Shown here piece by piece: positions 18,180-41,690 of a stretch of DNA of 64,000 bases. Below the pieces are notes generated by a model that saw only the letters and a program-made list of their open reading frames with translations, was not told the DNA's origin and made no database searches. This DNA is from an uncultured Pelagibacteraceae bacterium (GTDB lineage: Bacteria > Pseudomonadota > Alphaproteobacteria > Pelagibacterales > Pelagibacteraceae), in contig CACJBA010000001.1 of NCBI GenBank assembly GCA_902591535.1, positions 62,001 through 126,000 on the forward strand. The letters are read 5' to 3'. The position numbers and the translations under genes are program-made. The stretch's first letter is position 1, and each line of letters begins with the position of its first letter.

Positions 18180-19622
18180 ATGAAAAATTTTTATAGAAAA
18201 GTTGCTTTTGGTTTGAAACCTGATGAAAAAATTCCATCAGACCCATTGGTTTGGGCTACTTCGCAGATAACAGATAAAATTCCAGAGTTTTCATTTAAAG
18301 GTAAAATTTATTCTGAAGAAGAGTTAAGAAAGCATTATAGAGAGTATGTTTATCAAGACAGAAAAGTATTAAGAAAAAAGTTTAAAAAAGATAAAATGGG
18401 CTATAAAGCTGCTAAGAACTTATTAAAAGACAGTACAGGTCAAAAGTTCTGGAAAAATTTAGAAATAGCCATCAGACATAAAGAGGCAACTCAAGGAAAT
18501 CATCCTGTACTTGCAAAATTTTGGTACTTTTGGACAAATCATTTCACGATAAGTGATAAAGATTTTCTAGCAGATTATTCAACTGGTGGTTATCAAAGAG
18601 AGACAATTAGAGCTAATTTAAATAAATCGTTCGAGGAGCTAGCATATGAAGCAACTATAGCTTGGGCAATGATTCATCATTTAGATAATGCAGAAAATGT
18701 TGGCCCTAAATCTGAAGATGCAAGAGCTGAGTGGAGGAGAAGAAAAAAAAGACCAGCAACAATAAATGAAAATCATGCAAGAGAATTATTAGAGCTACAT
18801 ACTGTTTCACCTAATTCAGGATATACTCAAGAAAATATTACAGAGTTAGCTTTAATTATGACGGGTTGGGCACCGGATGACAAATACTGGAAAACAAAAC
18901 TCGAAACTGCAGATGTAAGATTTCAAAGCAAATATCACGAACCAGGAAAAAAAATATTTTGGGGAAAAGAGTTTCCCAAAGGAAAAAAAGGCCTACGAGC
19001 TGCAGTTAATTTTTTAGTAAATCATCCCTCTTGTAGAGAGTTTATTGCTTATAAACTTTGTAGATATTTGATTACAGATTATCCAACCAAAGAAATGACT
19101 GATCCAATTATAAAGGCATGGCAAAAGAGCGATGGTTTTTTACCTGAGGTGCATAAAGCAGCAATTGAAGTTGCTTTTAAATTTAATGACAAATATTCGA
19201 AATTTCAAAATCCAGAAAATTGGTGGCTGCAGATGAGCAGAATGACGGATGCAAAGTGGCCACCTAAAGATGAAAGATTTGATACATATAGACTCGGTGG
19301 GGGACCAGATCCTTATCAAGCAAAACCAAGTTGGTTCATGGAGGATATAGGTCATCATCCATATTTATCAAAGCAACCAAATGGTTATTCTGATTTAGCA
19401 GAAGACTGGATGTCACCAGAACTAATTATCAGAAGACTTATATATGCTAGACAAGGCTATATTAATTTAAAATCTGATAACAAAAACAATGAATTTTTCC
19501 AAAAGGTAGTGGATAAAAATTTTGATAATCCAGATAAAATAATGAAACTTTTAAATCAAAATGAGAAACCAATTGATAGACATATACTGTTATTTAACCT
19601 ACCGGAGGTATTTAGAGCATGA
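18180..19622 (+). CDS. DUF1800 family protein
   Basis: A 480-residue protein of the DUF1800 family, which usually pairs with DUF1501 proteins and has no agreed biochemical function. Family features include HPVLAKFWYFWTNHFTIS, NENHARELLELHTV, YTQENITELALIMTGW, and a region of W/H-rich segments before the C-terminus. No signal peptide is evident at the N-terminus. The start is the ATG directly after the pseudoknot element. It overlaps the DUF1501 gene by 4 bases (ATGA). It belongs to the first of two gene sets headed by the same RNA element. Confidence 0.85.
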   Translation: MKNFYRKVAFGLKPDEKIPSDPLVWATSQITDKIPEFSFKGKIYSEEELRKHYREYVYQDRKVLRKKFKKDKMGYKAAKNLLKDSTGQKFWKNLEIAIRHKEATQGNHPVLAKFWYFWTNHFTISDKDFLADYSTGGYQRETIRANLNKSFEELAYEATIAWAMIHHLDNAENVGPKSEDARAEWRRRKKRPATINENHARELLELHTVSPNSGYTQENITELALIMTGWAPDDKYWKTKLETADVRFQSKYHEPGKKIFWGKEFPKGKKGLRAAVNFLVNHPSCREFIAYKLCRYLITDYPTKEMTDPIIKAWQKSDGFLPEVHKAAIEVAFKFNDKYSKFQNPENWWLQMSRMTDAKWPPKDERFDTYRLGGGPDPYQAKPSWFMEDIGHHPYLSKQPNGYSDLAEDWMSPELIIRRLIYARQGYINLKSDNKNNEFFQKVVDKNFDNPDKIMKLLNQNEKPIDRHILLFNLPEVFRA

Positions 19623-20770
19623 AGATAACCAGAAGAAATTTTTTAAAAGGTTCTTTGGCGACTTTATTTTTAGCTGGATCGGGAATTCCCGTATATTCCT
19701 CTAATAAAGTTAAAAAAAACCTTGTTGTAATTATGCTTAGAGGTGGAATGGATGCCCTATGTGCTGTCCCTGTGATTGGTGATAAAAATTTTGAAAAGCG
19801 TAGAAAACAATTAATTTTAGATAATACTATAAAGTTAAATTCTGATTTTGCACTTCATCCAATTTTAGAAGGTTTTCATGAGCTATGGAAAGAAAAAAAA
19901 GGTGCCATTGTTCATGCAACAAACATTCCCTATACAGGCAGATCTCATTTTGATGGTCAAAATTTAATGGAGTCTGGAGGTAAAGTTCCCTATCAAGTCA
20001 AGACTGGATGGCTGGGCAGAGGAATGAAAATTGCTGGCCTAAAACAAGAGGGTTTAGCATTAGCTTTACCAATGCCATTAATTTTAAGAGGGGTTCCAAA
20101 AAATAACAATTATTTTCCAACGAAAGGTAAACTTCCTACAGATAAAGTCCTTGCTTTACTTAAAGATGTTTACAATGAAAAATCTGAAGATGAACTGATT
20201 GGTATGCTTGAGATAATAAAATCAAGACCTAAAGAGAGATCTTATGCAGCAGATGATTTATATTCTTTAGCAAATGAAGCGGGTACCTTAATGAAAGAAC
20301 CAGATGGACCAAGAGTAGCAGTTTTTGAAGTTGGAGGATTTGATACACATGCGGCGCAAGGAGGAGTTCATGGTACACATTCTGATTGTTTGAAAGATAT
20401 GGATCTTATATTTGCAACATTAAAGAAGAGACTTAAAGAAGAATTTGATAATACACTTATAGTTACTCTTACTGAGTTTGGTAGAACAATAAAACAAAAT
20501 AGCGGTTTGGGAACTGAGCATGGGTATGGCTCAGCTATATTTATGGGCGGAGGTCTTTTAAAGAAAAATCAAGTTTTTGCTGATTGGCCAGGCTTAAAGA
20601 AGAAAGAATTATTTGAGGGAAGAGATTTAAATTCTACAATTGATTCAAGATCAATCTATGCATCTGCTATGTCAACGGTATTTGATGTCGATTTTACAAG
20701 AATACAAAATGATGTTTTCTTCGGAGATCAATTACAAAACTATTCAGATAAATTATTTAAAACGATATGA
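19619..20770 (+). CDS. DUF1501 family protein with Tat signal
   Basis: A 383-residue protein beginning MKITRRNFLKGS, a twin-arginine export signal followed by a hydrophobic stretch, predicting folded export to the periplasm. The body matches DUF1501 (RGGMDALCAVPV, GGFDTHAAQGG and TLTEFGRTI), a family related to the alkaline phosphatase/sulfatase fold but without proven activity. It is translationally coupled to DUF1800. The ThrArgArg variant of the Tat motif is acceptable. A cofactor or metal-binding role is inferred only from Tat use and fold. Confidence 0.87.
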   Translation: MKITRRNFLKGSLATLFLAGSGIPVYSSNKVKKNLVVIMLRGGMDALCAVPVIGDKNFEKRRKQLILDNTIKLNSDFALHPILEGFHELWKEKKGAIVHATNIPYTGRSHFDGQNLMESGGKVPYQVKTGWLGRGMKIAGLKQEGLALALPMPLILRGVPKNNNYFPTKGKLPTDKVLALLKDVYNEKSEDELIGMLEIIKSRPKERSYAADDLYSLANEAGTLMKEPDGPRVAVFEVGGFDTHAAQGGVHGTHSDCLKDMDLIFATLKKRLKEEFDNTLIVTLTEFGRTIKQNSGLGTEHGYGSAIFMGGGLLKKNQVFADWPGLKKKELFEGRDLNSTIDSRSIYASAMSTVFDVDFTRIQNDVFFGDQLQNYSDKLFKTI

Positions 20771-20865: not shown

Positions 20866-21040
20866 ATGAAAGGTTTAGCCAGGTGAAGCATTTGGCAGAA
20901 GATCTGCCACAACAATAGTAAAATTAATAATTGTTTTTTTTCTACTAATTTTTTTTACATCTAATTTAGAAGCAGCAAAGGAAGAAAAAGAAAAAGATTG
21001 TACTTATTGTAAGAAGTACGAAAAGTTAAAGGATTGGCCT
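20866..21040 (+). pseudogene. Disrupted N-terminus (signal anchor) of the following lysine-rich gene
   Basis: An ATG at 20866 has an excellent ribosome site (AGGA at 20855-20858, 7 bases away) but meets TGA after six codons (MKGLAR). If one base is skipped around 20881, the reading continues as GEAFGRRSATT, then a hydrophobic helix (IVKLIIVFFLLIFFTSN) and DCTYCKKYEKLKDWP, joining the frame of the next gene without a stop. No standard start exists in that frame before the TTG at 21041. This suggests a one-base insertion, a sequence error or, less likely, programmed +1 frameshifting. Confidence 0.6.
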
Positions 21041-21571
21041 TTGAGTGAAAGGCCAGAAGCGTTTATATACGAAGAAATTGTATACCCAGAGGGAATGTTT
21101 CATGAAAGCTTAATTAAAAGCAAACAAAAGCAAGGTGAAGCAGGTAGAAAAGTATATCAAAGATTTGTGAAAGGAAAAGGTGAGTTAAACAAATACCAAC
21201 ATCATATGATTAGAGACATGGCCTATTTCGAGGCTTTGTTTAATGAAATGCTTAATGACAAAAATGCAAGTGTTGAAACATTAGAGGGCATTAAAAAAGG
21301 CAGAGAAGCCATGAGGATGAGCTTAAATATTTCACCAAAAGCTAAATCATCAGAGGCAGTTCTTAAATTTTGGGCAACAGGTAAAATGCTTTATGCAGCA
21401 CATAAAAAAAATAAAAAGAAAAAGAAAAAGAAAGCAAAAAAATTAACTCCAGAAATAGCTGAGCGTGCTGCAGTATTAGCTAATCTGAAAAAACAAATTG
21501 CAACAGCAAAAGTAAATGCTCAAAGAGCTGCTACTATTACAGCTCAAGAAAAAATAGAGGAAGGAAATTAA
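21041..21571 (+). CDS. Lysine-rich hypothetical protein, probably membrane-anchored when intact
   Basis: I do not recognise the family. From the TTG at 21041 it has 176 residues, mostly helical and charged, with a long lysine run at about residues 125-133 and an Ala-rich C-terminus (ATAKVNAQRAATITAQEK). The TTG has no clear ribosome site, and coding sequence for a signal anchor and a CxxC segment lies in frame just upstream, so the annotated start is probably an artefact of the frameshift described at 20866. Five bases separate it from the Met-rich gene, suggesting one operon with DUF1800/DUF1501. Confidence 0.6.
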   Translation: MSERPEAFIYEEIVYPEGMFHESLIKSKQKQGEAGRKVYQRFVKGKGELNKYQHHMIRDMAYFEALFNEMLNDKNASVETLEGIKKGREAMRMSLNISPKAKSSEAVLKFWATGKMLYAAHKKNKKKKKKKAKKLTPEIAERAAVLANLKKQIATAKVNAQRAATITAQEKIEEGN

Positions 21572-21576
21572 TTACT

Positions 21577-24036
21577 TTGAAGATTATAATTAAAACTTTT
21601 TTAATATTTTTATTATTTCTAAACTTAACTGTTAAAGCAAATGATATAGCTGCTATGTCTGGAATTTCAGAAGCAGCAGGAAACTCAGCTCAAGCTGCAG
21701 CAGATCAATTAGCTGCAGATGCAGGTAAAGTTGCAGAAAATATTTCAGGCGCAACAGAAGCTTTAGGACAAGCAAAAAGTGATATAGGTAAAGCCTTGGA
21801 TGTATCCATTGCTCAGGCTGAAACTGCAATGCAATTTGCTACAGAAAGTTTAGCAAAAGGCGATATCACTTCTGCAGTACAGGCAATGTCATTAGTTGAA
21901 GGTGTTACTGATATGGCCTTAGGCGCTATTCCAGATCCTACAGCTTTGGATATGACTGGAATTGATTTTGCAAATGATTTTTCTCCAGAAGAGATGGCAG
22001 CCTTGTCTAGTATAGCTGGCCAAATGGGTGCTGGAAAAGTTGTATCGTTACAAAAAATGGCTGGGCAGATGAATGCTTTAGGTGCTGTTGGATTTGATGC
22101 TAAAGGAATGATGGGAACTTTAGATGCTCAAGGAATAGGTATGGGTTCTGCCATGGAAGGATTATCAAAATCAGGTTTAGTAGATATGGAGGCCATAACT
22201 GGTTCAGCTAATTTCGATATGGCAAATTTTAATCCAGGAAATTTTGCTTCTATGAATGTTGCAGAGATGGGAATGAATCCAGTAATGATGGCAGGAGCTT
22301 TGAATGCATTGCCAGTTGGTGCCGCAACTGCTGCTCTAGAAACGTTAGCAGCTAATCCTGATACGATGGGTCAAATGAGTCAATCTATGACTGGTGCAAT
22401 AGTAGCTACCATGAGTGCCAAAGGCATGGGTGAAGAAATGATGAAGAGCATGGAGACAAGTATTGGAATGGAAGGCATGACAGATATGGCTAAAGGTATG
22501 GGTGGTATAGAGGGAATGCAGGAAATTGGAAAAGCAATGCAAGAGATGGGAATGGATCAAATGGCTCAAACATTGCAAACAGCATTCGCCAATCCAGAAG
22601 TTGGAATTACCTCAGCTATGTCAGGAACAGTTGGAATGATAAGCCAAGCAATTTCAGGAAAAGCACCAAAAGAACAGAATGCCATTCAAAAAGGAATGGG
22701 GATGAAAGATTCTTTTGCAAACAATATGTCAGCGCCTGAAGCTATAGAGATGCCAGAAAATGTAAGTGAGTCTGGAATGATGATGGGTGCAATGATCATG
22801 GCCAAACCATCTTTAGCAGGAGGATTGCCTGGTGCAATGGCGCCCCCTGAAGGAATGACAGCTTTAGGTATGGGACAAGTTTTAGATCCTACTAATCCGT
22901 CAGGTGGTATGATGATGGGAGGAGTTATGGAAAACATGTCAAAAGCTGATATGGGTGAAGCAATGGCAAACATGACTGGAATGGAAGTTGGAGAAATGGA
23001 TAAATTAGGAATGGCTGATATGGCAATGCAAACAGGTTTAACTCCAGGAATGGTAGCAAGCATGGGTGCAGCAGGAATTGCAGGAATGGATGTATCGACA
23101 ATTATGTCAACTAACGTTGCTGGACTTGGCAGTAAAGCTATTAAAGGAGTTGCAGAAATGGCTAAGTCTGGAAATTTATCTGCTGGTCAAATGGGAGATA
23201 TGATGGAAGTTGGATTAGTCAACCAAGGAACAATGGCTGCTATGGGAGCTGAGGGAATGAAAGGATTAAGCGGCGCTATGGGAATGGAAGGTGGAGACAT
23301 GGGCCTTGCAGCGATGAGTGGTGGAATGGTTGGTATGGGAGAAATGAATTTAGATGCACAAATGAATCCAGAAATGGCAGCGAGTATGGGTTTAGTAGGA
23401 AGTCCTGAGGGTGCAAAATTAGGAGATATAATGGGTGGAGCACCTGAAGGGTTAGAAGGTGGTATGAAAGGTGGAATGAATTTAGGACAAGTCTCTGCTG
23501 CAATGGGAACAGGAGTTGACCCAGGAGCAGCAATTGGAAACGTAGCAGGTGCTGCAATGGCAGCTGATGGAGCAGGAGGATTAGCAGGTGCTGCAATGGG
23601 ATCAGCTATGGCTGCTCAAGGAGCAGCAGCGTCAGCTATGGGTTCTCATGCAATGGGAGCAGCAATGGGAATGGAAGGCATGGGCGAAGGTGCAATGGGT
23701 AAAGCCATGGGCGGCGCTATGCAAGAAGGAATGTCAGGAACAATGGGTGGCGCTATGGCAGGTGCAATGGCTGGAGGTCCAGCTGGCCCAGGCGATATGG
23801 GTCCAATGGGTGATATGGGTCCAATGGGCGGTCCAGATGGTGGTCCAATGGGTGATATGGGTCCAATGGGCGGCGACATGGGCGGCATGGGTGGTGCTAT
23901 GGGAGATATTGGTGGTGCTGTTGAAGGAGCAATGGGAGGTCCAGGTGCTCCGGGTGATCCAGGTCCAGGCCAACCAGGAGCTCCTCCTCCAGGTGACCCA
24001 GGTCCAAATCCAGGTGGTCCAGGAGATCCTAAGTAA
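21577..24036 (+). CDS. Exported methionine/glycine/alanine-rich low-complexity protein
   Basis: Not assignable to a family. It has 819 residues with a signal peptide (about 1-21, ending VKA). The mature part is dominated by Met, Gly and Ala: I count about 116 Met (about 14%) and see no Cys, Trp or Tyr. The centre has imperfect Met-Gly helical-type repeats, and the last 120 residues become GPM/GDM and Gly-Pro rich, almost collagen-like. The start is TTG with GAGGAAGG about 10 bases upstream. A structural or surface role, or metal binding through methionine, are guesses. It lies 14 bases before the glycoside hydrolase gene. Confidence 0.75.
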   Translation: MKIIIKTFLIFLLFLNLTVKANDIAAMSGISEAAGNSAQAAADQLAADAGKVAENISGATEALGQAKSDIGKALDVSIAQAETAMQFATESLAKGDITSAVQAMSLVEGVTDMALGAIPDPTALDMTGIDFANDFSPEEMAALSSIAGQMGAGKVVSLQKMAGQMNALGAVGFDAKGMMGTLDAQGIGMGSAMEGLSKSGLVDMEAITGSANFDMANFNPGNFASMNVAEMGMNPVMMAGALNALPVGAATAALETLAANPDTMGQMSQSMTGAIVATMSAKGMGEEMMKSMETSIGMEGMTDMAKGMGGIEGMQEIGKAMQEMGMDQMAQTLQTAFANPEVGITSAMSGTVGMISQAISGKAPKEQNAIQKGMGMKDSFANNMSAPEAIEMPENVSESGMMMGAMIMAKPSLAGGLPGAMAPPEGMTALGMGQVLDPTNPSGGMMMGGVMENMSKADMGEAMANMTGMEVGEMDKLGMADMAMQTGLTPGMVASMGAAGIAGMDVSTIMSTNVAGLGSKAIKGVAEMAKSGNLSAGQMGDMMEVGLVNQGTMAAMGAEGMKGLSGAMGMEGGDMGLAAMSGGMVGMGEMNLDAQMNPEMAASMGLVGSPEGAKLGDIMGGAPEGLEGGMKGGMNLGQVSAAMGTGVDPGAAIGNVAGAAMAADGAGGLAGAAMGSAMAAQGAAASAMGSHAMGAAMGMEGMGEGAMGKAMGGAMQEGMSGTMGGAMAGAMAGGPAGPGDMGPMGDMGPMGGPDGGPMGDMGPMGGDMGGMGGAMGDIGGAVEGAMGGPGAPGDPGPGQPGAPPPGDPGPNPGGPGDPK

Positions 24037-24050
24037 AAATAAAAATAAAA

Positions 24051-25061
24051 ATGTTTATTAGATTTATTTTATTCATTGTTTTTTTTAATCTGGTTTCAAA
24101 TTCATCTTTTGCAAACTCTAGATTTGGAGAGTTAACTGAAATGCGAGATAAAAAAATGAGAGGTAAAGATAATCAATGGGTTAGACCTCATCCAGGACCT
24201 TTTATATGGAACCACATTGAAAAAGAAAAAGGAAAGTTTACTTGGGAAGAGGCAGACAAATATGTTGTTTATGCTCAAGAACACAATCAAACAATTTTAG
24301 CTACTATCTGGCCTCACGCTAATTGGGAGCAAAAATCTTGTAAAAGAAAAAAAGCAAGAAGTCCCTTTGGAAAAAAATTTACCAAATATCTTAGCAAACC
24401 CTGTTCAATGGATGACTATAAAAACTTTCTTTTACAATTAGTTGATCGTTATGACGGAGATGGTTCAAATGATATGCCCGGCCTAACTAAACCAATTATA
24501 TACTGGGATATAATGAACGAGCCTGAGTTTAAAATGTTTTTCAAAGGAAGTGAGGAAGACTTTGTAGAAATATTTAATTTTTCATCTAAGGTAATTAAGG
24601 AAAAACAGCCAGATGCAGTCATTGTTATGGCTGGTGCTGCAGGAATGTTTCCAGAAAGTAAAAAATTTTGGAAGTCTGCTTTGCCAAAAATCAAAGATCA
24701 TTTTGATATCGCAAATATTCACCATATAAGTGGTCCTGATGGTCAGTGTGATAGAGAACTATGGGTGGATGAATTTGCTGCCTTATTAAAAAGTGTAGAT
24801 GTAAATAAACCTATTTGGTTAACTGAAGCTATGACTTGTGGTGCTCCTGTAAAAGCTTGGGTAAAAGCTTTTTTAAATGGAGCTGAGCTGATTATCGATG
24901 TTGGTGTAAATGCTCCAGGAAAAAAAATGAGCAAAAAAGGTAGAAAGAAATTAAATGAATTCATTGCTGAATATGATGGATTTACATCAATAAAAAGTAT
25001 TTCAAAAAAACAAGTAGAATTTACTTACAGCGATGGATCTAAAAAAATATTAGATTTTTAA
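24051..25061 (+). CDS. Secreted clan-A (GH5/10/39-like) glycoside hydrolase
   Basis: A 336-residue protein with a signal peptide (about 1-21) and a TIM-barrel layout. Retaining glycosidase residues fit clan GH-A: E157 in MNEPE as acid/base and E259 in WLTEA as nucleophile, about 100 residues apart. The N-terminal segment GPFIWNHIEKEKGKFTWEEADKYV resembles GH10/GH39/GH42 beginnings. The substrate is unknown, and xylan-, galactan- or fucose-type glycans cannot be distinguished. Secreted glycosidases are unusual for SAR11. It follows the Met-rich gene closely. Confidence 0.75.
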   Translation: MFIRFILFIVFFNLVSNSSFANSRFGELTEMRDKKMRGKDNQWVRPHPGPFIWNHIEKEKGKFTWEEADKYVVYAQEHNQTILATIWPHANWEQKSCKRKKARSPFGKKFTKYLSKPCSMDDYKNFLLQLVDRYDGDGSNDMPGLTKPIIYWDIMNEPEFKMFFKGSEEDFVEIFNFSSKVIKEKQPDAVIVMAGAAGMFPESKKFWKSALPKIKDHFDIANIHHISGPDGQCDRELWVDEFAALLKSVDVNKPIWLTEAMTCGAPVKAWVKAFLNGAELIIDVGVNAPGKKMSKKGRKKLNEFIAEYDGFTSIKSISKKQVEFTYSDGSKKILDF

Positions 25062-25117
25062 ATTACCATCAATTCTTACAATTGACATCACAATCACAAT
25101 AGTTAATATTAATTTTC

Positions 25118-25155
25118 AAAGTCTGGTTGTGCTGACTTTTAAATCAAGGGACAAC
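25118..25155 (+). ncRNA. Candidate pseudoknot regulatory RNA, copy 2
   Basis: Identical to the element at 18132 in 36 of 38 positions. P1 pairs AAAGTC (25118-25123) with GACTTT (25134-25139). The loop GTTGT (25126-25130) can pair with ACAAC (25151-25155). The loop (TGGTTGTGCT) and linker (TAAATCAAGGG) are unchanged. Both differences are in the outermost P1 pair and keep it paired. It lies 23 bases before a 15-codon mini-ORF and 81 bases before the serine hydrolase start. The competing CTTG/CAAG hairpin possible in copy 1 is weakened here, which favours the pseudoknot. Confidence 0.6.
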
Positions 25156-25178
25156 AAACGTTTTAAAAAATTTAAAAT

Positions 25179-25226
25179 ATGAAAAAATTGTTTGTTGTAA
25201 TTTCATTAATTTTTCTTCTAATATAA
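25179..25226 (+). CDS. 15-codon signal-peptide-like mini-ORF
   Basis: MKKLFVVISLIFLLI followed by TAA, ending 10 bases before the serine hydrolase start. It looks like the first part of a signal peptide with nothing after it. It could be a leader peptide linking the pseudoknot to downstream translation, or the stub of a deleted exported gene. No strong ribosome site is seen. Confidence 0.35.
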   Translation: MKKLFVVISLIFLLI

Positions 25227-25236
25227 AAAAAGGTAA

Positions 25237-26679
25237 ATGAAAAAAATTTTAATAATTATATTTTTATTTTTATTTTCAAATACATCTTACGCAAATGATT
25301 CAAGAATTGACGAGTTTAACAATTGGTTATTAGACAACGGTCATACACAGTATTTAAATATTGAACAAAAAGCAGGATGCAAAAAATTAATTCAAAAACA
25401 TGGTTTAAAAGTACCAAAGGTTGGTCTTATTGATGAACCAAAGGTTAAAACTAACGAGTGGTTCTGGCTTGAATGTCATAAAGTTCAAGCCACAAATAAT
25501 CTAAAAATAAAATTTTTTAAATCACCAGAAATTCCTTGGGGCACTAATCCAAATAAAGATACTTTGCTGTATTATTTATTTAGATACATTGTTACAGAAG
25601 ATGGATTTGACCGTGCTGGCTCTAAAGGATCAAAAAATCCTTATAAATTTAAAACCGAATTAAGAGATGACAAAATTTCCAAATACATCAAAAAACATAT
25701 GCAGAAAACAGCATTACTTAGTTACTTACTTTACGAAGATGGTAAAATTACTATAGATGAGATATCGCCAAAAAATCGTTTTGGAATTTTGTTTGATAAT
25801 AATACTCAGTTCACCAGCATGTCTGTTGGAAAAAGCATTGTATCCTATGTGACAGGTCATGCAATTTGTAAAGGATATATAAATGGTGTTGACCATAGAT
25901 TAAATGATTGGCCTCTATTAGAAAATACACTTTTTTATGATCAAAAATTAATAAATCTTCTAAATATGGCTGCTGGTCATCAAAAATATGCAGATAAGGA
26001 TTTAAAAACAAATAAATACAGAAAAAATGCGAACGCAAATACTGTTGAATTTCACTTGCAGAAGGGAGTTTTTAAAGACTCAAAAAAGGTAAAAAGCAAA
26101 TATCAATACACTAATTTTATAACCAATATTTTAATAAACTATGTTTGGTTCAAATCTGAAGGTCAATTTCAAAATCTTTTAGATGAAATATTTATAGACA
26201 AAGCAAAAGTTAAAAATGATGTGTGGTTTTTAAAAATGAATGACAGAACTATTAAATCCAATAATAGAAATAATAAAATTTTAAAAGAGTATAAAGTAAG
26301 AGATGAAGATGGTCCTTTAAGATATTCATTCAATGCTACAAGGTATGATTATCTGAGAATAGCTAAAGCAATGCTAGATGATTGGCAAAATGATACTTGT
26401 GTTGGAAAGTATTTAAAAAATATTCATGAAAGAAGAATTCCAAAAAATGATAAGTGGAAAGATGACAAAAGTCCAGGTTTAAATCCTAAATCATATGCTG
26501 GGCAGTTCTACGCAGACTATTCAGGAATGCGTGGAAGGAATATAATGGGAATGGTTGGTAAAGGTGGACAAAGTATTATGATTGATTTTGATAAAGGTAG
26601 AATAAACGTAATTAATACTATTCACATAGATTATAATTGGAAAAAAATAGCTCATGCAGTTATTAAAAAAGGTAAATGA
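25237..26679 (+). CDS. Exported beta-lactamase-fold serine hydrolase
   Basis: A 480-residue protein with a signal peptide (about 1-19). The class C beta-lactamase/DD-peptidase catalytic motifs are visible: SVGK (S196 and K199 of SxxK) and YTN (Y291 to N293 of YxN). The C-terminal GKGGQS segment is a plausible third box. Members include esterases, peptidases and amidases, so the substrate is open. In this context it may deacylate a glycan or peptide. AGGT lies 3 bases before the ATG. It overlaps the next gene by 4 bases. Confidence 0.8.
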   Translation: MKKILIIIFLFLFSNTSYANDSRIDEFNNWLLDNGHTQYLNIEQKAGCKKLIQKHGLKVPKVGLIDEPKVKTNEWFWLECHKVQATNNLKIKFFKSPEIPWGTNPNKDTLLYYLFRYIVTEDGFDRAGSKGSKNPYKFKTELRDDKISKYIKKHMQKTALLSYLLYEDGKITIDEISPKNRFGILFDNNTQFTSMSVGKSIVSYVTGHAICKGYINGVDHRLNDWPLLENTLFYDQKLINLLNMAAGHQKYADKDLKTNKYRKNANANTVEFHLQKGVFKDSKKVKSKYQYTNFITNILINYVWFKSEGQFQNLLDEIFIDKAKVKNDVWFLKMNDRTIKSNNRNNKILKEYKVRDEDGPLRYSFNATRYDYLRIAKAMLDDWQNDTCVGKYLKNIHERRIPKNDKWKDDKSPGLNPKSYAGQFYADYSGMRGRNIMGMVGKGGQSIMIDFDKGRINVINTIHIDYNWKKIAHAVIKKGK

Positions 26680-27605
26680 AAAAAGTACTATTAGTAATTT
26701 TATCCTTTTTCTTATTTTTTTCTGTTCAAGCCAAAGAATGGAAAAATAAAAATAAGTGGAAAATTTCTTGCGGCGTAGTTAATGATGAGTCTCTCATTGT
26801 AAATGGAAAAAGTAAAAAATATTCAAAAAACGAATTCAAATTAGTAGATGTGGTTTTCAAGCTTGATAAAGGAGATATAGGTAGTTGTCCTACAGACAAG
26901 AAACCAGCAGGTGGGTACCCTTATTCTGGTAGACAAGAAATAACTCATAAACTTCCAATAGGACATACTATTTTTGAAACTGATATTACAATTGATGGTG
27001 CTCCATCAGCTAGATCAACTATATTTCAAATACACGATGGTAGAAATAAAGGTGCTCCTCCCTCGTGGATAGGTATAGATGGTGGCTGGAAAATTATTCA
27101 AAAATTTCCCAAAGGAGAATGTTCTTCAGAAAATTGTAAAATGTTAGAATTCATTACTTTAGAAACTGGTAAAACTTATAGATTTAAGGCAGAGGTAGAT
27201 TATAAAAAAAAAGCCAAATTTTTATCTGTTAAATATTATCTTGATGATAAATTTATTCTTCATCATTATGACGTCCCACTATTAACTAAAAAGACCGATG
27301 GACCTTACGGACCAACCAAACCTTATATTAAAATTGGTATCTATAGAATTGGAGATACTGGTACAACAACTTATGCATATAAGAATTTAGTTATAAAAAA
27401 TAAAAAAAAATCTTCATTTGAAAAAGTTGATAGTTCAAAAGGCGCAACTAAATTTTTTGTTGTTGTTTCAAGAAAATCAGATCCTTCCGTTCAATTTCGA
27501 TATGAAGATGAGCTTAAAGGAAAAGCTAGAACACAAGCTTTAAAAAAATGTTTTACTGCAGGACATGACGATTGTGAAGTTTCTTTGATTGGTGTCACGA
27601 AATAA
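26676..27605 (+). CDS. Secreted concanavalin-fold polysaccharide lyase-like protein (1 of 3)
   Basis: A 309-residue protein with a signal peptide (about 1-19). The central region (TIFQIHDGRNKGAPPSWIGIDG, KYYLDDKFILHHY, YIKIGIYRIGDTG) resembles jelly-roll polysaccharide lyases such as PL7/PL13/PL20 and the Polysacc_lyase (heparinase I-like) group. The KxGIYR strand is the clearest match. After about residue 245 comes a short extra domain (FFVVVSRKSDPSVQFRYEDELKG). Four cysteines may form disulfides. It is coupled to the serine hydrolase and followed after 4 bases by the next family member. Lyase activity is inferred from fold only. Confidence 0.6.
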   Translation: MKKVLLVILSFFLFFSVQAKEWKNKNKWKISCGVVNDESLIVNGKSKKYSKNEFKLVDVVFKLDKGDIGSCPTDKKPAGGYPYSGRQEITHKLPIGHTIFETDITIDGAPSARSTIFQIHDGRNKGAPPSWIGIDGGWKIIQKFPKGECSSENCKMLEFITLETGKTYRFKAEVDYKKKAKFLSVKYYLDDKFILHHYDVPLLTKKTDGPYGPTKPYIKIGIYRIGDTGTTTYAYKNLVIKNKKKSSFEKVDSSKGATKFFVVVSRKSDPSVQFRYEDELKGKARTQALKKCFTAGHDDCEVSLIGVTK

Positions 27606-27609
27606 TTAA

Positions 27610-28536
27610 ATGAGAAAAATTGTAATTTTATTTACTATTTTTATTCTATTTATTTTTAACAATGTTTTTGCTGAAAAGATAAATGTTAAAAATGGAGTAA
27701 AGTTACCAAAAGACGTTGCTAGAGGATATGAAAATCCCTGGGAATTATTCTGTACATGGACCGAAGATGGAAAATGTATGACACCTAAATACGCTTTACA
27801 AATTGTAAATAAAAAAGACAACCATCCAGTAAGGCTTGGGAAAAAATCTATTAGAATGGAATTAAGAAAAGGAGATTGTCATCAAAAAAGAAAAGGTTCT
27901 TATAATGATTGTAAAGCTACTCCTCCCGCAGAAAGACATGAGCTTACAAACAGAAATGATATTTTGGGAAAGAAATGGCATACATATTCAATTTATTTAC
28001 CAAAAGAAAATCCAAAAGTAATCTCTGAATGGATTACTATGGGTCAATTTCATTCATTAAATGTATCTTACCCACCTGTAAATTTGGATCTTGAGCATGA
28101 TCAATTTCTTTTAGTGACAAGGTTTTTATGTATTCATCCAAAAAAAATTGGAAAATCATGTTCTTCTGATGATCCTGAAAATAGAAGAATAAAAATTCTA
28201 AACAGTGATGAATTATTTGGAAAATGGAATGACTTTATTTTTAGTGCTAATTGGACCAATAATGAAAAAAAGGGATATTTTAAATTTTGGTTAAATGGAA
28301 AACTAATTTATCATTTTAATGGAAGAACTATTGGACCTGAAGCAGATGATGCAGCAATTCATCAGTTAGGAATATATAGAGGTGCGGCTAAAAATTCTGG
28401 AGACGCAAATCATGTTGTTTATTATGATGAAATTAAAACGGCTTCGTCTTGTAAAAAAATTAACTTAAAAAAACTTGGCTATTCTTGTAAAGATATAGAA
28501 AATCAAAAACTTGAAACAATACATAAAATTAAATGA
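27610..28536 (+). CDS. Secreted heparinase-I-fold polysaccharide lyase-like protein (2 of 3)
   Basis: A 308-residue protein with a signal peptide (about 1-21). It is the best match of the three to the Polysacc_lyase family: PPAERHELTNRNDILGKKWHTYSIYLP early, then WITMGQFHS, GKWNDFIFSANWTNNEKKGYFKFWLNGKLIYHFNG and QLGIYRG. The conserved RHE segment and QFH segment line the cleft in relatives. Cleavage by beta-elimination of a uronic-acid glycan is the family activity; the actual glycan is unknown. It is flanked within 4-10 bases by the related genes, so an operon is likely. Confidence 0.68.
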   Translation: MRKIVILFTIFILFIFNNVFAEKINVKNGVKLPKDVARGYENPWELFCTWTEDGKCMTPKYALQIVNKKDNHPVRLGKKSIRMELRKGDCHQKRKGSYNDCKATPPAERHELTNRNDILGKKWHTYSIYLPKENPKVISEWITMGQFHSLNVSYPPVNLDLEHDQFLLVTRFLCIHPKKIGKSCSSDDPENRRIKILNSDELFGKWNDFIFSANWTNNEKKGYFKFWLNGKLIYHFNGRTIGPEADDAAIHQLGIYRGAAKNSGDANHVVYYDEIKTASSCKKINLKKLGYSCKDIENQKLETIHKIK

Positions 28537-28546
28537 ATAAAATTCA

Positions 28547-29554
28547 ATGAAAAAAATTTTAGTAATACTGATTATGAGCTTATTATTAAGCTCCAATGCT
28601 TTTGCCAATAAGTGGCATATTAAAATGAAGAAAAAAGAAAAAAAAGATTTTGCCCATTATGTTCTTAAAGCACAGTCAGATAATAAAATGGTATTTAACC
28701 TTAGAAACATCAAAAATTCTAAAATGTATAAGTTTTTTGATAAGTTTGAGGATCGTATGGGAGTTGCTGAAAAAGGAGTTGAGTTTAATTTAAAATATTC
28801 ATTTGAAGGCCATAAACAAGATTGGTCTAGATGGGGAAAACCCGGACATGCACAAAGATTCCAGATAATGGAGCCCTATAAGGAAACTACCAAAAAAAAT
28901 AAAACGAAATGGTATAGGGTTGGTTATTTTTTTCCAGAAGATGTGAGAATTGATAAACATACAATATCTTTATTTGATTTTAAAAAATTATATGGAAAAG
29001 GTGAGAAAACTCATGATGCAGCTCTCAATATTATAAATAATAGATTTAATTGGGTATTTAATTCACCAAATTACACTGCTCATAAAAATGAGACGGGTGA
29101 GGAATATTTATATTTCGATACCTATTTTGTAAATCTTGATCACTATTTTTCGCCATTGAAAGGTAAATGGGTCAATGTCTTAGTAAACGCAAAATGGGCT
29201 GAAAACGGATTTTTACACTTGTGGATAGATGGAAAACTTAGATCAAGCTACTATGGTGATACTTTAGGTGGTGCGTCAAGTGTAAGATTTAAATTTGGAC
29301 CTTATAGACACCACATGAATCAGGCAACGGAAGCTGGTATTGAAATTCCTGATGTTAAAATTAAATATTCTAATGTTGGTAAAGCTGATAATTGTGATGA
29401 TTTGTGGAGTGGTTGTTCTGAAATAGTAAGTCAATTAAATGGAAAATCCCAGCTTAATGGAGTAAGGATGGTTGCATTTTGTAAAACAGCTCCTCAATCA
29501 GACGGATCTTCTTGTAAAAATTTAGGCTATCCATCTAATCAAAGACCTTTTTGA
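28547..29554 (+). CDS. Secreted heparinase-I-fold polysaccharide lyase-like protein (3 of 3)
   Basis: A 335-residue protein with a signal peptide (about 1-20). It shares the family strands WYRVGYFFPEDV, LKGKWVNVLVNAKWAENGFLHLWIDGKL and FKFGPYRH with the two upstream proteins, but is diverged elsewhere and lacks an obvious RHE segment (AQRFQIM occupies the place). It may be a carbohydrate-binding relative or an enzyme with altered specificity. A Cys-containing tail (about residues 280-335) could be disulfide-linked. It precedes the sulfatase gene by 36 bases. Confidence 0.6.
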   Translation: MKKILVILIMSLLLSSNAFANKWHIKMKKKEKKDFAHYVLKAQSDNKMVFNLRNIKNSKMYKFFDKFEDRMGVAEKGVEFNLKYSFEGHKQDWSRWGKPGHAQRFQIMEPYKETTKKNKTKWYRVGYFFPEDVRIDKHTISLFDFKKLYGKGEKTHDAALNIINNRFNWVFNSPNYTAHKNETGEEYLYFDTYFVNLDHYFSPLKGKWVNVLVNAKWAENGFLHLWIDGKLRSSYYGDTLGGASSVRFKFGPYRHHMNQATEAGIEIPDVKIKYSNVGKADNCDDLWSGCSEIVSQLNGKSQLNGVRMVAFCKTAPQSDGSSCKNLGYPSNQRPF

Positions 29555-29590
29555 TTAGATTTAGATTTTATTAAGTATTATTATTTTTAT

Positions 29591-31174
29591 ATGGGAAAAG
29601 TAAAAAACATACTTTTTATAATGGCTGATCAATTGAGATGGGATTATCTATCTTGTTATGGTCATCCTCATTTAAAAACTCCTAATATTGACAGTTTAGC
29701 AAAAAAAGGAGTACAGTTCGATTCTGCTTTTGTCCAATCACCAGTGTGTGGCCCTTCAAGAGCATCTTATTACACTGGTAGAACAGTTTTTAGTCATGGC
29801 TCTACATGGAACCAAGTTCCGCTTCCAATTGGAGAATTAACTATTGGAGACTATTTACGACAATCAGGAATAAGAACTGGTGTAGTTGGTAAAACACACA
29901 TGAGACCAGATTTAGATGGTATGAGCAGACTTGGTATTACTAAAGATACTGAAATTGGATTGATAGTTAGCGAACCCGGGTTTGATCCTTATGAAAGAGA
30001 TGATGGCCTTCATCCAAATAATCAAATTAAAAATTCTAAAAAAACTTTATCTTACAATGAATGGTTAAATAAACTTGGATATGATGGGCCTAATCCATGG
30101 AATGATTGGGCAAATTCTGCTGAAGGTGAAAATGGTGAAATACTAAGTGGTTGGCGACTAAGAAATTCGAATAAACCTGCAAGAATTCCTGAAGAGCATT
30201 CCGAAACAGCTTTCATGACCAATCGAGCAATGGAATTTATAGAAGAAAGTAAACATAAACCATGGTTTTTACATTTATCTTATATCAAACCACATTGGCC
30301 TTATATGGCACCAGCCCCTTATCATAATATGTATTCTGCTAATGAATTTTATCCAGTTCATAGAAATGATGCTGAACGAAATAATGATCACCCAGTTTAT
30401 AAAGCATTTATGGAAAATAGTATTTCCAAAACTTTTTCAAAAGATGAAGTAAGAAATACAGTTCTTGCTGGATATATGGGTTTGATAAAACAAATTGATG
30501 ACAATTTAGGAAGGTTATTTAAATTCTTAGAAAGTTCAGGTCATATGGATGATACGATGATTATATTTACTTCAGATCATGGAGACTACCAAGGTGATCA
30601 TTGGTTAGGCGAAAAAGAATTATTTCATGAGCAGTCAGTTAGAGTTCCAATGATTATTTATGATCCAAGTGATTATGCAAATAAAACTCGAGGCACAAAA
30701 GAACAAAGATTTATAGAAGCCATCGATTTACTACCAACTTTTTTGGATGCAGTAGAAAGTCCGGCAAGCAAACATAGATTAGAAGGTAATTCATTAATGC
30801 CATTATTAAAAGGGGAGAGTACTAAAAATTGGAAAGAATTTGTTTTTAGTGAAATAGATTATGCATTTAATGAAGCTAGAAAAATTTTGAACATAGGAGC
30901 CTCAGATGCAAGAGCCTTTATGATAAGAAATAATAATTGGAAGTATATTTATTACAAAGGATTTGAACCACAGTTGTTTGATTTAAAAAATGATCCAGAC
31001 GAATTTAATGATTTAGGAAAATCTGAAAAACATTCAAAGATTAGAGAAGAAATGAAAGAATTACTTCTGAAAAGAATTATAGATAGAAAAAATAGAGTTG
31101 CAGCTACTGATGAGTTTGTAACTAAAGAAAGAGACTATACCAAAGATGATGGTATTATGATTGGTGTTTGGTAA
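29591..31174 (+). CDS. Sulfatase-superfamily hydrolase (arylsulfatase or phosphonate monoester hydrolase)
   Basis: A 527-residue alkaline-phosphatase-superfamily enzyme. The formylglycine site is CGPSR at residues 53-57, with metal ligands in MADQLRWD and FTSDHGDYQGDH. The cysteine must be oxidised by a maturase, which is not in this window. Length and the segments GLIKQIDDNLGRLF and DDTMIIFTSDHGD resemble the phosphonate monoester hydrolase/arylsulfatase branch as well as glycan sulfatases. No signal peptide is visible, so it is probably cytoplasmic, which weakens a role on extracellular polysaccharide. It abuts the convergent dctM-like gene. Confidence 0.83.
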   Translation: MGKVKNILFIMADQLRWDYLSCYGHPHLKTPNIDSLAKKGVQFDSAFVQSPVCGPSRASYYTGRTVFSHGSTWNQVPLPIGELTIGDYLRQSGIRTGVVGKTHMRPDLDGMSRLGITKDTEIGLIVSEPGFDPYERDDGLHPNNQIKNSKKTLSYNEWLNKLGYDGPNPWNDWANSAEGENGEILSGWRLRNSNKPARIPEEHSETAFMTNRAMEFIEESKHKPWFLHLSYIKPHWPYMAPAPYHNMYSANEFYPVHRNDAERNNDHPVYKAFMENSISKTFSKDEVRNTVLAGYMGLIKQIDDNLGRLFKFLESSGHMDDTMIIFTSDHGDYQGDHWLGEKELFHEQSVRVPMIIYDPSDYANKTRGTKEQRFIEAIDLLPTFLDAVESPASKHRLEGNSLMPLLKGESTKNWKEFVFSEIDYAFNEARKILNIGASDARAFMIRNNNWKYIYYKGFEPQLFDLKNDPDEFNDLGKSEKHSKIREEMKELLLKRIIDRKNRVAATDEFVTKERDYTKDDGIMIGVW

Positions 31175-39678: not shown

Positions 39679-39984
39679 ATGAAGCCAGGTGAAGTAATTA
39701 CAAAAAACGAGGAAATAGAATTAAATAAAGACTCTAAAGTTACTAAGATAAAAATTTCTAATTCTGGAGATAGACCTGTACAAGTTGGAAGCCATTATCA
39801 TTTTTTTGAAACAAATGAGTATTTAGTTTTTGACAGGGAATTATCATATGGAAAAAGATTAAATATACCTTCAGGAACTGCTGTAAGATTTGAGCCAGGT
39901 CAATCTAAAGATGTTGAGCTTATAGAAATAAATGGATCAAAAAAAATATACGGGTTCAATAAGAAAGTTATGGGGAAATTATAA
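39679..39984 (+). CDS. ureB: Urease beta subunit
   Basis: Structural subunit, 101 residues, starting [18 protein letters not shown]. It holds the conserved [18 protein letters not shown] and [22 protein letters not shown] segments. The gene overlaps ureC by 1 base (TAATG). Separate gamma, beta and alpha subunits are the usual bacterial arrangement. Confidence 0.97.
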
Positions 39985-41690
39985 TGGCCAAAATTTCTAG
40001 AGCAGCTTATGCGGATATGTATGGGCCTACAACAGGAGACAAAGTAAGGCTCGCAGATACTGACTTATATATTGAGGTTGAAAACGATCTAACAACTTAT
40101 GGTGAAGAGGTAAAGTTTGGTGGTGGAAAAGTAATTAGAGATGGGATGGGTCAATCTCAAATTAGTAGAAAAAAAGGAGCTGCAGATACAGTTATAACTA
40201 ATGCTTTAATTGTTGATGTAAATGGAATTTATAAAGCTGATGTTGGTTTAAAGGATGGAAAAATAATTGAAATTGGTAAAGCTGGAAATCCAGACACTCA
40301 ATCTGAAGTAAATATTATTATTGGTCCAGGAACAGAGATAATTGCAGGTGAAGGAAAAATTTTAACAGCAGGGGGTTTTGATAGTCATATTCATTATATA
40401 TGCCCCCAACAAATTGATGATGCTTTACATTCAGGTATCACGACTATGCTCGGAGGAGGTACTGGACCTGCTCATGGTACACTTGCAACAACTTGTACGC
40501 CGGGACCATGGCATATACAAAGAATGATCCAATCTGCTGATGGTTTTTCTATGAATTTAGCTTTTGCTGGGAAAGGAAATTCTTCATTACCAGAAGGTCT
40601 TGAGGAACAAATTCTAGCCGGAGCCTCAGCACTTAAACTACATGAGGATTGGGGAACCACTCCTGGAGCAATTGATAATTGTTTAAATATTGCTGACAAA
40701 AATGATGTACAAGTAATGATTCACACAGACACTTTAAATGAAAGTGGTTTTGTAGAAAATACCATCAAAGCAATTAACAAACGAACTATTCATGCTTTTC
40801 ATACAGAGGGTGCTGGCGGTGGACATGCACCAGATATAATTAAAGTTTGTGGAGAAGAGTATGTTATTCCTTCTTCAACAAATCCAACCAGACCATATAC
40901 AGTCAATACAATAGAAGAACATTTAGATATGTTAATGGTGTGTCACCATCTTGATAAATCAATTCCGGAGGATGTAGCATTTGCTGAAAGTAGAATAAGA
41001 AGAGAAACTATTGCAGCAGAAGATATCCTTCATGATATGGGTGCCTTTTCAATTATTGCATCAGATAGTCAGGCAATGGGAAGAGTAGGAGAAGTTATCA
41101 TTAGAACTTGGCAAACCGCACATAAAATGAAAGTTCAAAGAGGAAGTTTGCCAGAGGAAAAAGGGGATAATGATAATTTTAGAGTTAAGAGATATTTAGC
41201 AAAATACACAATTAATCCTGCAATTGCTCATGGAATTTCAAAACATATTGGTAGTATTGAAAAAAATAAACGTGCAGATTTAGTTCTGTGGGATCCAGCA
41301 TTCTTTGGTGCTAAACCAGAAATGATTTTAATAGGAGGAAGTATAGCTTGTGCGCAGATGGGAGACCCAAATGCATCAATTCCAACTCCACAGCCAGTAT
41401 ACACTAGACCAATGTTTTCATCATTTGGAACTTCTTTAGAGAAATCTTCAGTAATTTTCACAAGTAAACTAGCTCTTGAAAAGAATTCTTTAAAAGATGC
41501 AGGTATTAGAAAAGACTTATTACCTGTAGAAAACACAAGAGCCATTTCTAAAAAAGATATGATTTTAAACAACAAGTGTCCAAAAATTGAGGTAAATCCT
41601 GAGACATACGAGGTGAAAGCTGATGGTGAGATAATTACCTGTGAACCAGCTAAAGAACTTCCTTTGGCACAAAGATATTTTATGTTTTAG
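39984..41690 (+). CDS. ureC: Urease alpha (catalytic) subunit
   Basis: Di-nickel catalytic subunit, 568 residues as expected. The nickel-binding HIHYICPQQ (two His), the carbamylated lysine in [38 protein letters not shown] and the active-site flap [22 protein letters not shown] are all intact, so the enzyme should be functional. All needed accessory genes (D, E, F, G) are in the cluster. No urea transporter gene is adjacent, so uptake may rely on diffusion or on genes elsewhere. Confidence 0.98.

What the first reader, a model, noticed from the sequence alone, without database searches (positions are those of the whole stretch)
21577..24036. 819-residue exported protein with about 14% methionine and no Cys, Trp or Tyr
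I count about 116 Met, interspersed with Gly and Ala, with a Gly-Pro-Met collagen-like tail. This composition is rare, and costly for an organism with reduced sulfur pathways as known for SAR11. It may be a structural or surface polymer, an oxidant sink or a metal binder. It sits in an operon with DUF1800/DUF1501 proteins of unknown function.
Basis: partly seen in the sequence, partly recalled or inferred. Interest (0 to 1): 0.75.

Follow-up and report, generated by a model that had tools for sequence, protein, structure and literature searches.

The report
Methionine-cored exported protein of SAR11
Some SAR11 ocean bacteria make a large exported protein in which one residue in seven is methionine; it belongs to an undescribed protein family in which methionine has replaced the usual oily residues of the interior, and it is made together with a partner gene that appears to need a ribosomal reading-frame shift to be translated.

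Summary
21577-24036 (+) is an intact 819-residue ORF (TTG start, Sec-type signal peptide) with 116 Met (14.2%), no Cys, Trp, Tyr or Arg and one His. It is not a broken repeat: 28 full-length relatives in Pelagibacteraceae keep it, dN/dS is 0.06-0.22, and Met is the best-conserved residue. No Pfam, NCBIfam or PDB sequence family matches.

Three orthologues from the same genus have similar length, the same partner gene and the same lack of Cys/Trp, but only 3% Met. At the Met columns they carry Ile/Leu/Met/Val in 83% of cells. So Met was substituted one for one at apolar core positions. That argues against a dedicated metal-site array.

In SAR11 paralogues it is fused to a relative of the Met protein's N-terminal domain. 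In 17 loci it has no start codon in frame. A conserved ATG in the frame before leads into an invariant TTA GCC AGG, which points to a programmed +1 frameshift.

Most likely this is a subunit of a SAR11-specific envelope or surface protein pair with a soft, methionine-packed helical body. Function is inferred. Oxidant buffering and element economy are live rivals.

The parts
21577..24036 (+). Met-rich exported protein, 819 aa, TTG start
   Evidence: 28 full-length relatives
21577..21639 (+). signal peptide of the Met-rich protein (cut before ND[IV])
   Evidence: conserved hydrophobic core and A-x-A|ND in the relatives; by inspection
21640..22190 (+). N-terminal helical domain, lowest Met content in its first 80 residues; related to the N-terminal domain of giant SAR11 paralogues and, through them, to fused paralogues
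   Evidence: hhalign A6-A4 96.5%, E 8e-10 over 128 columns; A6-A5 92%, E 6e-7
22191..23770 (+). Met/Gly/Ala body, predicted as many short helices; Met columns correspond to Ile/Leu/Val in low-Met orthologues
   Evidence: structure models of low confidence
23771..24033 (+). variable Gly/Pro/Met tail, absent from the low-Met orthologues
20866..21571 (+). partner gene: exported, DCxYC motif, lysine-rich, basic; ATG at 20866 in the frame before, main frame open from 20879
   Evidence: dN/dS 0.04-0.08
20875..20883 (+). TTA GCC AGG, proposed +1 frameshift site, invariant in 17 loci
24051..25061 (+). GH10-like exported protein, frequent downstream neighbour (24 of 32 loci); weak Pfam GH10 match below cut-off
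18180..20770 (+). DUF1800 and DUF1501 genes; optional neighbours
25237..31174 (+). variable polysaccharide cargo: weak class C beta-lactamase-like exported protein, three PF14099 polysaccharide lyase-like proteins, sulfatase

Best explanation
The Met-rich protein is one subunit of an exported two-protein complex so far found only in SAR11. Its acidic body of short helices packs with methionine where orthologues use isoleucine, leucine or valine, giving a soft, flexible, chemically plain scaffold at the cell envelope or surface. The basic, lysine-rich DCxYC partner is made just before it and binds its N-terminal domain. Translation of the pair is probably set by a +1 frameshift at the start of the partner gene. 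SHOWN by sequence: the exported pair, its conservation, the one-for-one replacement of aliphatic residues by Met, the fusion of related parts in paralogues, and the conserved start arrangement. INFERRED: physical complex, location beyond the inner membrane, scaffold role, and use of the frameshift.
For: Conserved family, dN/dS 0.055-0.22, Met identity 91.6% with 69 of 115 Met invariant. Orthologues with 3% Met and 32-34% identity, with partner adjacent; at 99 Met columns they have I 28, L 27, M 15, V 13%. Total M+I+L+V is similar, 27% versus 29%. Partner adjacent wherever the contig reaches far enough. A fused paralogue, one copy in this genome, carries the partner domain (98%, E 2.7e-13) and a relative of the Met protein's N-terminal domain, linked through the giant paralogues; the fused profile runs across the gene boundary of a split pair in G054. 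Opposite charge: Met protein 27 K+R versus 82 D+E, partner 42 versus 24.
Against: No reliable fold: pLDDT 38 and 41, no PDB fold match. Helical periodicity of Met is weak. The direct profile match between fused paralogue and the Met protein is not significant, so that link rests on the intermediate giant paralogues. No expression or localisation data. Met-rich and low-Met forms differ in cargo and in tail, so their roles may differ.
Confidence: 0.5

Rival explanations
1. [quoted passage not shown]
For: Exported; Met is the only easily oxidised residue kept in number (no C/W/Y, one H). This genome has MsrP and an MsrQ-like gene and MsrB. MrpX with yedYZ is described as a periplasmic methionine cycle (PMC4623255).
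Against: Low-Met orthologues also lack C/W, so that absence was not selected alongside Met. MsrP is unlinked and its co-occurrence is not significant: 10/14 versus 8/20, p = 0.09. Met sits at core positions. No MsrA found (genome 79% complete).
Confidence: 0.2
2. Element economy: an abundant exported protein was stripped of nitrogen and carbon (Asn/Ser/Lys to Gly/Ala, Ile/Leu to Met), paid for with organic sulfur that SAR11 obtains ready-made.
For: C per residue 3.98 versus 4.42 in the low-Met orthologue and 5.13 in window ORFs; N per residue 1.11, 1.18 and 1.34. Asn/Ser/Lys positions become Gly/Ala.
Against: Met for Ile/Leu/Val saves no nitrogen, and SAR11 lacks assimilatory sulfate reduction (PMC5069961, abstract), so Met is a costly choice; the partner gene is nitrogen-rich in lysine.
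Confidence: 0.15
3. Copper or silver binder using Met motifs.
For: Exported and rich in M-x2-M and M-x3-M pairs: 22 and 26.
Against: These spacings also fit helix packing; Met columns are aliphatic in orthologues; no copper gene among the neighbours scanned; one His, no Cys.
Confidence: 0.06
4. Artefact: frameshifted or drifting low-complexity repeat.
For: Biased composition, GC 0.46 against about 0.30 around it.
Against: Open in independent single-cell assemblies, strong purifying selection.
Confidence: 0.01

Closest known systems
MrpX-type periplasmic methionine-rich peptide with MsrP/MsrQ (YedYZ)
   Same: exported and Met-rich; MsrP/MsrQ-like genes exist in the genome
   Different: 819 aa conserved protein, no detectable homology to any curated family, not in an operon with msrPQ, Met at core positions, low-Met orthologues exist
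Collagen-like Gly-X-Y proteins
   Same: Gly/Pro-rich tail
   Different: strict Gly-X-Y runs of only 6 triplets here; body is predicted helical; tail is absent in the low-Met orthologues
Ty1/ABP140 (CUU_AGG_C) and Ty3 (GCG_AGU_U) +1 frameshift sites (PMC5009743)
   Same: slow AGG in the A site as in Ty1; Ala codon in the P site as in Ty3; new frame begins with Gly (GGC/GGU), as GGC in Ty1
   Different: bacterial, at the very start of a gene, and needed to make any full-length product; inferred from comparison only

Membership tests
MrpX / MsrPQ methionine cycle | Met-rich peptide encoded next to msrP/msrQ | tested here: not met
   MsrP/MsrQ-like pair on contig C19, not near this gene; MsrP not found in 4 of 14 genomes with the Met-rich protein, drafts 87-96% complete
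MrpX / MsrPQ methionine cycle | exported, Met-rich | tested here: met
MrpX / MsrPQ methionine cycle | reversible Met oxidation in vivo | not testable with these tools
   needs experiment
Any curated protein family | profile match in Pfam, NCBIfam or PDB sequences | tested here: not met
   (best PDB hit for the family E 0.083)
Collagen-like proteins | long uninterrupted Gly-X-Y | tested here: not met
   6 triplets
DUF1800/DUF1501 operon | constant linkage with these genes | tested here: not met
   present in about half of the loci with enough upstream sequence
Programmed +1 frameshifting (partner gene) | no start in the main frame; conserved start and slow-codon site in the frame before | tested here: met
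   17 of 17 loci with the motif; GCC about 5% of Ala codons and AGG about 6% of Arg codons in the window
Programmed +1 frameshifting (partner gene) | trans-frame protein observed | not testable with these tools
   needs peptide or reporter data

The most novel reading that the evidence does not exclude
SAR11 owns an undescribed family of paired exported proteins in which one lineage rebuilt a whole protein interior out of methionine, and a bacterial +1 frameshift on rare Ala/Arg codons gates translation of the pair.
Probability: 0.4. Interest if true: 0.82.

Novelty: categorically new. Interest (0 to 1): 0.68.

Why it matters
SAR11 bacteria are among the most abundant cells in the sea and depend on reduced sulfur, yet some invest in an exported protein that is 14% methionine. 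The low-Met orthologues are a natural control for asking what methionine does in a protein interior. The conserved shift site would, to my knowledge, be a rare bacterial +1 frameshift outside prfB, and it explains why a constant partner gene is easily missed or mis-started by gene callers.

Tried and rejected
SAM or other riboswitch upstream: no Rfam match at gathering threshold there, and only chance-level hits at E <= 10. Phage origin: none of 42 pattern hits in IMG/VR encodes a relative. Structure prediction: two AlphaFold jobs, pLDDT 38 and 41, and Foldseek found nothing with E below 0.6. Spread beyond SAR11: the partner profile A3 matched only the own genome in a class sample of 190, and profile A4 only the own genome in a phylum sample of 399. 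Helical periodicity of Met: weak only. The AAAGGTTTAGCCAGG motif as a general regulatory element: one copy in the own genome and one in one of 100 relatives, both at this locus. Papers: nothing found on this protein.

Full report
Observation. 21577-24036 (+) is a single open frame of 819 codons that begins with TTG. It holds 116 Met counting the start (14.2%), 159 Gly, 134 Ala, no Cys, Trp, Tyr or Arg and one His. Other window ORFs of 200 aa or more average 2.45% Met (SD 1.11), so it lies 10.6 SD out. The N-terminus is a typical Sec signal peptide, kept in the relatives (by inspection). The genome is a SAR11 draft (1.15 Mb, 38 contigs, 79% complete), and all 32 genome-contig loci are named Pelagibacteraceae.

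It is a real, constrained protein. The 28 full-length relatives aligned share 72-96% of the mature sequence. dN/dS against the window is 0.055-0.22. Met is the most conserved residue: 91.6% mean identity, 69 of 115 invariant. Occurrence is patchy: 18 of 397 Pelagibacterales genomes, three of them with the low-Met form. No Pfam, NCBIfam or PDB sequence family matches. No relatives were found in viral contigs or elsewhere in a phylum-wide sample.

The key comparison. A profile search returned three orthologues of 736-764 residues (L063, L064, L065) with the same partner gene next to them. They are 32-34% identical and align end to end apart from the tail, but have only 2.8-3.4% Met. They too lack Cys and Trp and nearly lack Tyr, Arg and His, so that absence is a family trait while Met-richness belongs to one subfamily. 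At 99 columns that are Met in the Met-rich forms they carry I 28%, L 27%, M 15% and V 13%. The sum M+I+L+V is about equal in both (27% and 29%). Ser, Asn and Lys positions tend to become Gly or Ala. More distant paralogues are also low in Met, so the Met-rich state is probably derived. The tree separates the two forms fully; unlike composition is noted there as a caution.

The partner. Immediately upstream lies an exported basic protein with DCxYC and a lysine-rich stretch (frame 20879-21571). It precedes the Met protein wherever the contig reaches far enough (its frame is broken in L032 and L038) and is under stronger constraint (dN/dS 0.04-0.08). DUF1800/DUF1501, polysaccharide lyases and sulfatase come and go; the GH10-like gene follows in 24 of 32 loci. 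A 582-residue exported paralogue in this same genome (G000:C1:161411-163156) joins the partner domain (hhalign 98.0%, E 2.7e-13) to a region related to the N-terminal domain of the Met protein, by way of giant SAR11 paralogues. The direct comparison alone is not significant. With the fused profile, one match in G054 runs across the stop codon between the two genes of a split pair. This gene-fusion evidence, with opposite net charges, suggests that the two proteins act together.

The start of the partner gene. In 17 loci the partner's frame opens with a stop codon followed by CCA GG and holds no ATG, GTG or TTG ahead of the hydrophobic core of the signal peptide. An ATG in the frame before leads through a few varying codons (MKGLAR, MRGLAR, MKVLAR, MQGLAR, MRYYRKGLAR, MRHYSKGLAR, MNGFLAR) into TTA GCC AGG, invariant at all nine bases while flanks average 62-63% identity. 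The variation includes an in-frame insertion, as expected of translated sequence. GCC and AGG are rare here (39 of 725 Ala and 26 of 416 Arg codons). A +1 shift at GCC AGG Y gives ...Leu-Ala-Gly..., running into the signal peptide. AGG_C is the slow A-site element of the yeast Ty1 site, and Ty3 uses an Ala codon in the P site (PMC5009743). Other loci start normally in frame (for example L020, L023, L024, L029). The tree needs at most three changes and does not exclude one origin. Start from a non-standard codon is the main alternative. In several loci the partner's stop overlaps the start of the Met gene, so translational coupling of the two is plausible but inferred.

How it most likely works. 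The best-supported reading is an exported acidic, helix-rich scaffold with Met as packing residue, made with a basic partner. The fold is not established: both models are of low confidence, though they agree on many short helices. Why Met was chosen is open. Oxidant buffering is possible: MsrP/MsrQ-like genes are in the genome, but linkage is absent and co-occurrence not significant (10/14 versus 8/20, p = 0.09). Economy of carbon and nitrogen fits the composition but not the sulfur price in a lineage without sulfate assimilation (PMC5069961, abstract). Metal binding is least likely.

Verdict. A new SAR11 protein family with a Met-built subfamily; the family is new, while novelty of the function cannot be judged yet.

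Noticed in passing
window 20866-20884 (and 16 related loci): Conserved ATG...TTA GCC AGG before a frame without start codons: candidate programmed +1 ribosomal frameshift in SAR11.
   Followed up: partly
window 24051-31174: SAR11 cluster of GH10-like, weak beta-lactamase-like, three PF14099 polysaccharide lyase-like proteins and a sulfatase, next to PMT_2 and GT2 glycosyltransferases: polysaccharide-active genes, which by general knowledge are not expected in SAR11, in a variable region.
   Followed up: partly
G000:C1:161411-163156 (L098:9412-11157 -), L061, L062, L103: Wider SAR11 superfamily of exported proteins: fused 580-residue forms and giant 1.1-1.65 thousand-residue forms with their own partner genes; no known family.
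   Followed up: partly
window 18180-20770: DUF1800-DUF1501 pair downstream of a GT2 gene, recalling the bacterial chitin synthase neighbourhoods in PMC5122149.
   Followed up: no
L032 and L038, partner gene: Partner frame appears broken in two single-cell assemblies; error or decay not resolved.
   Followed up: no
window 40141-40414 (-): Rfam 5_ureB_sRNA match antisense to a coding frame (39984-41690 +); probably the model matching the conserved protein gene on the other strand.
   Followed up: no
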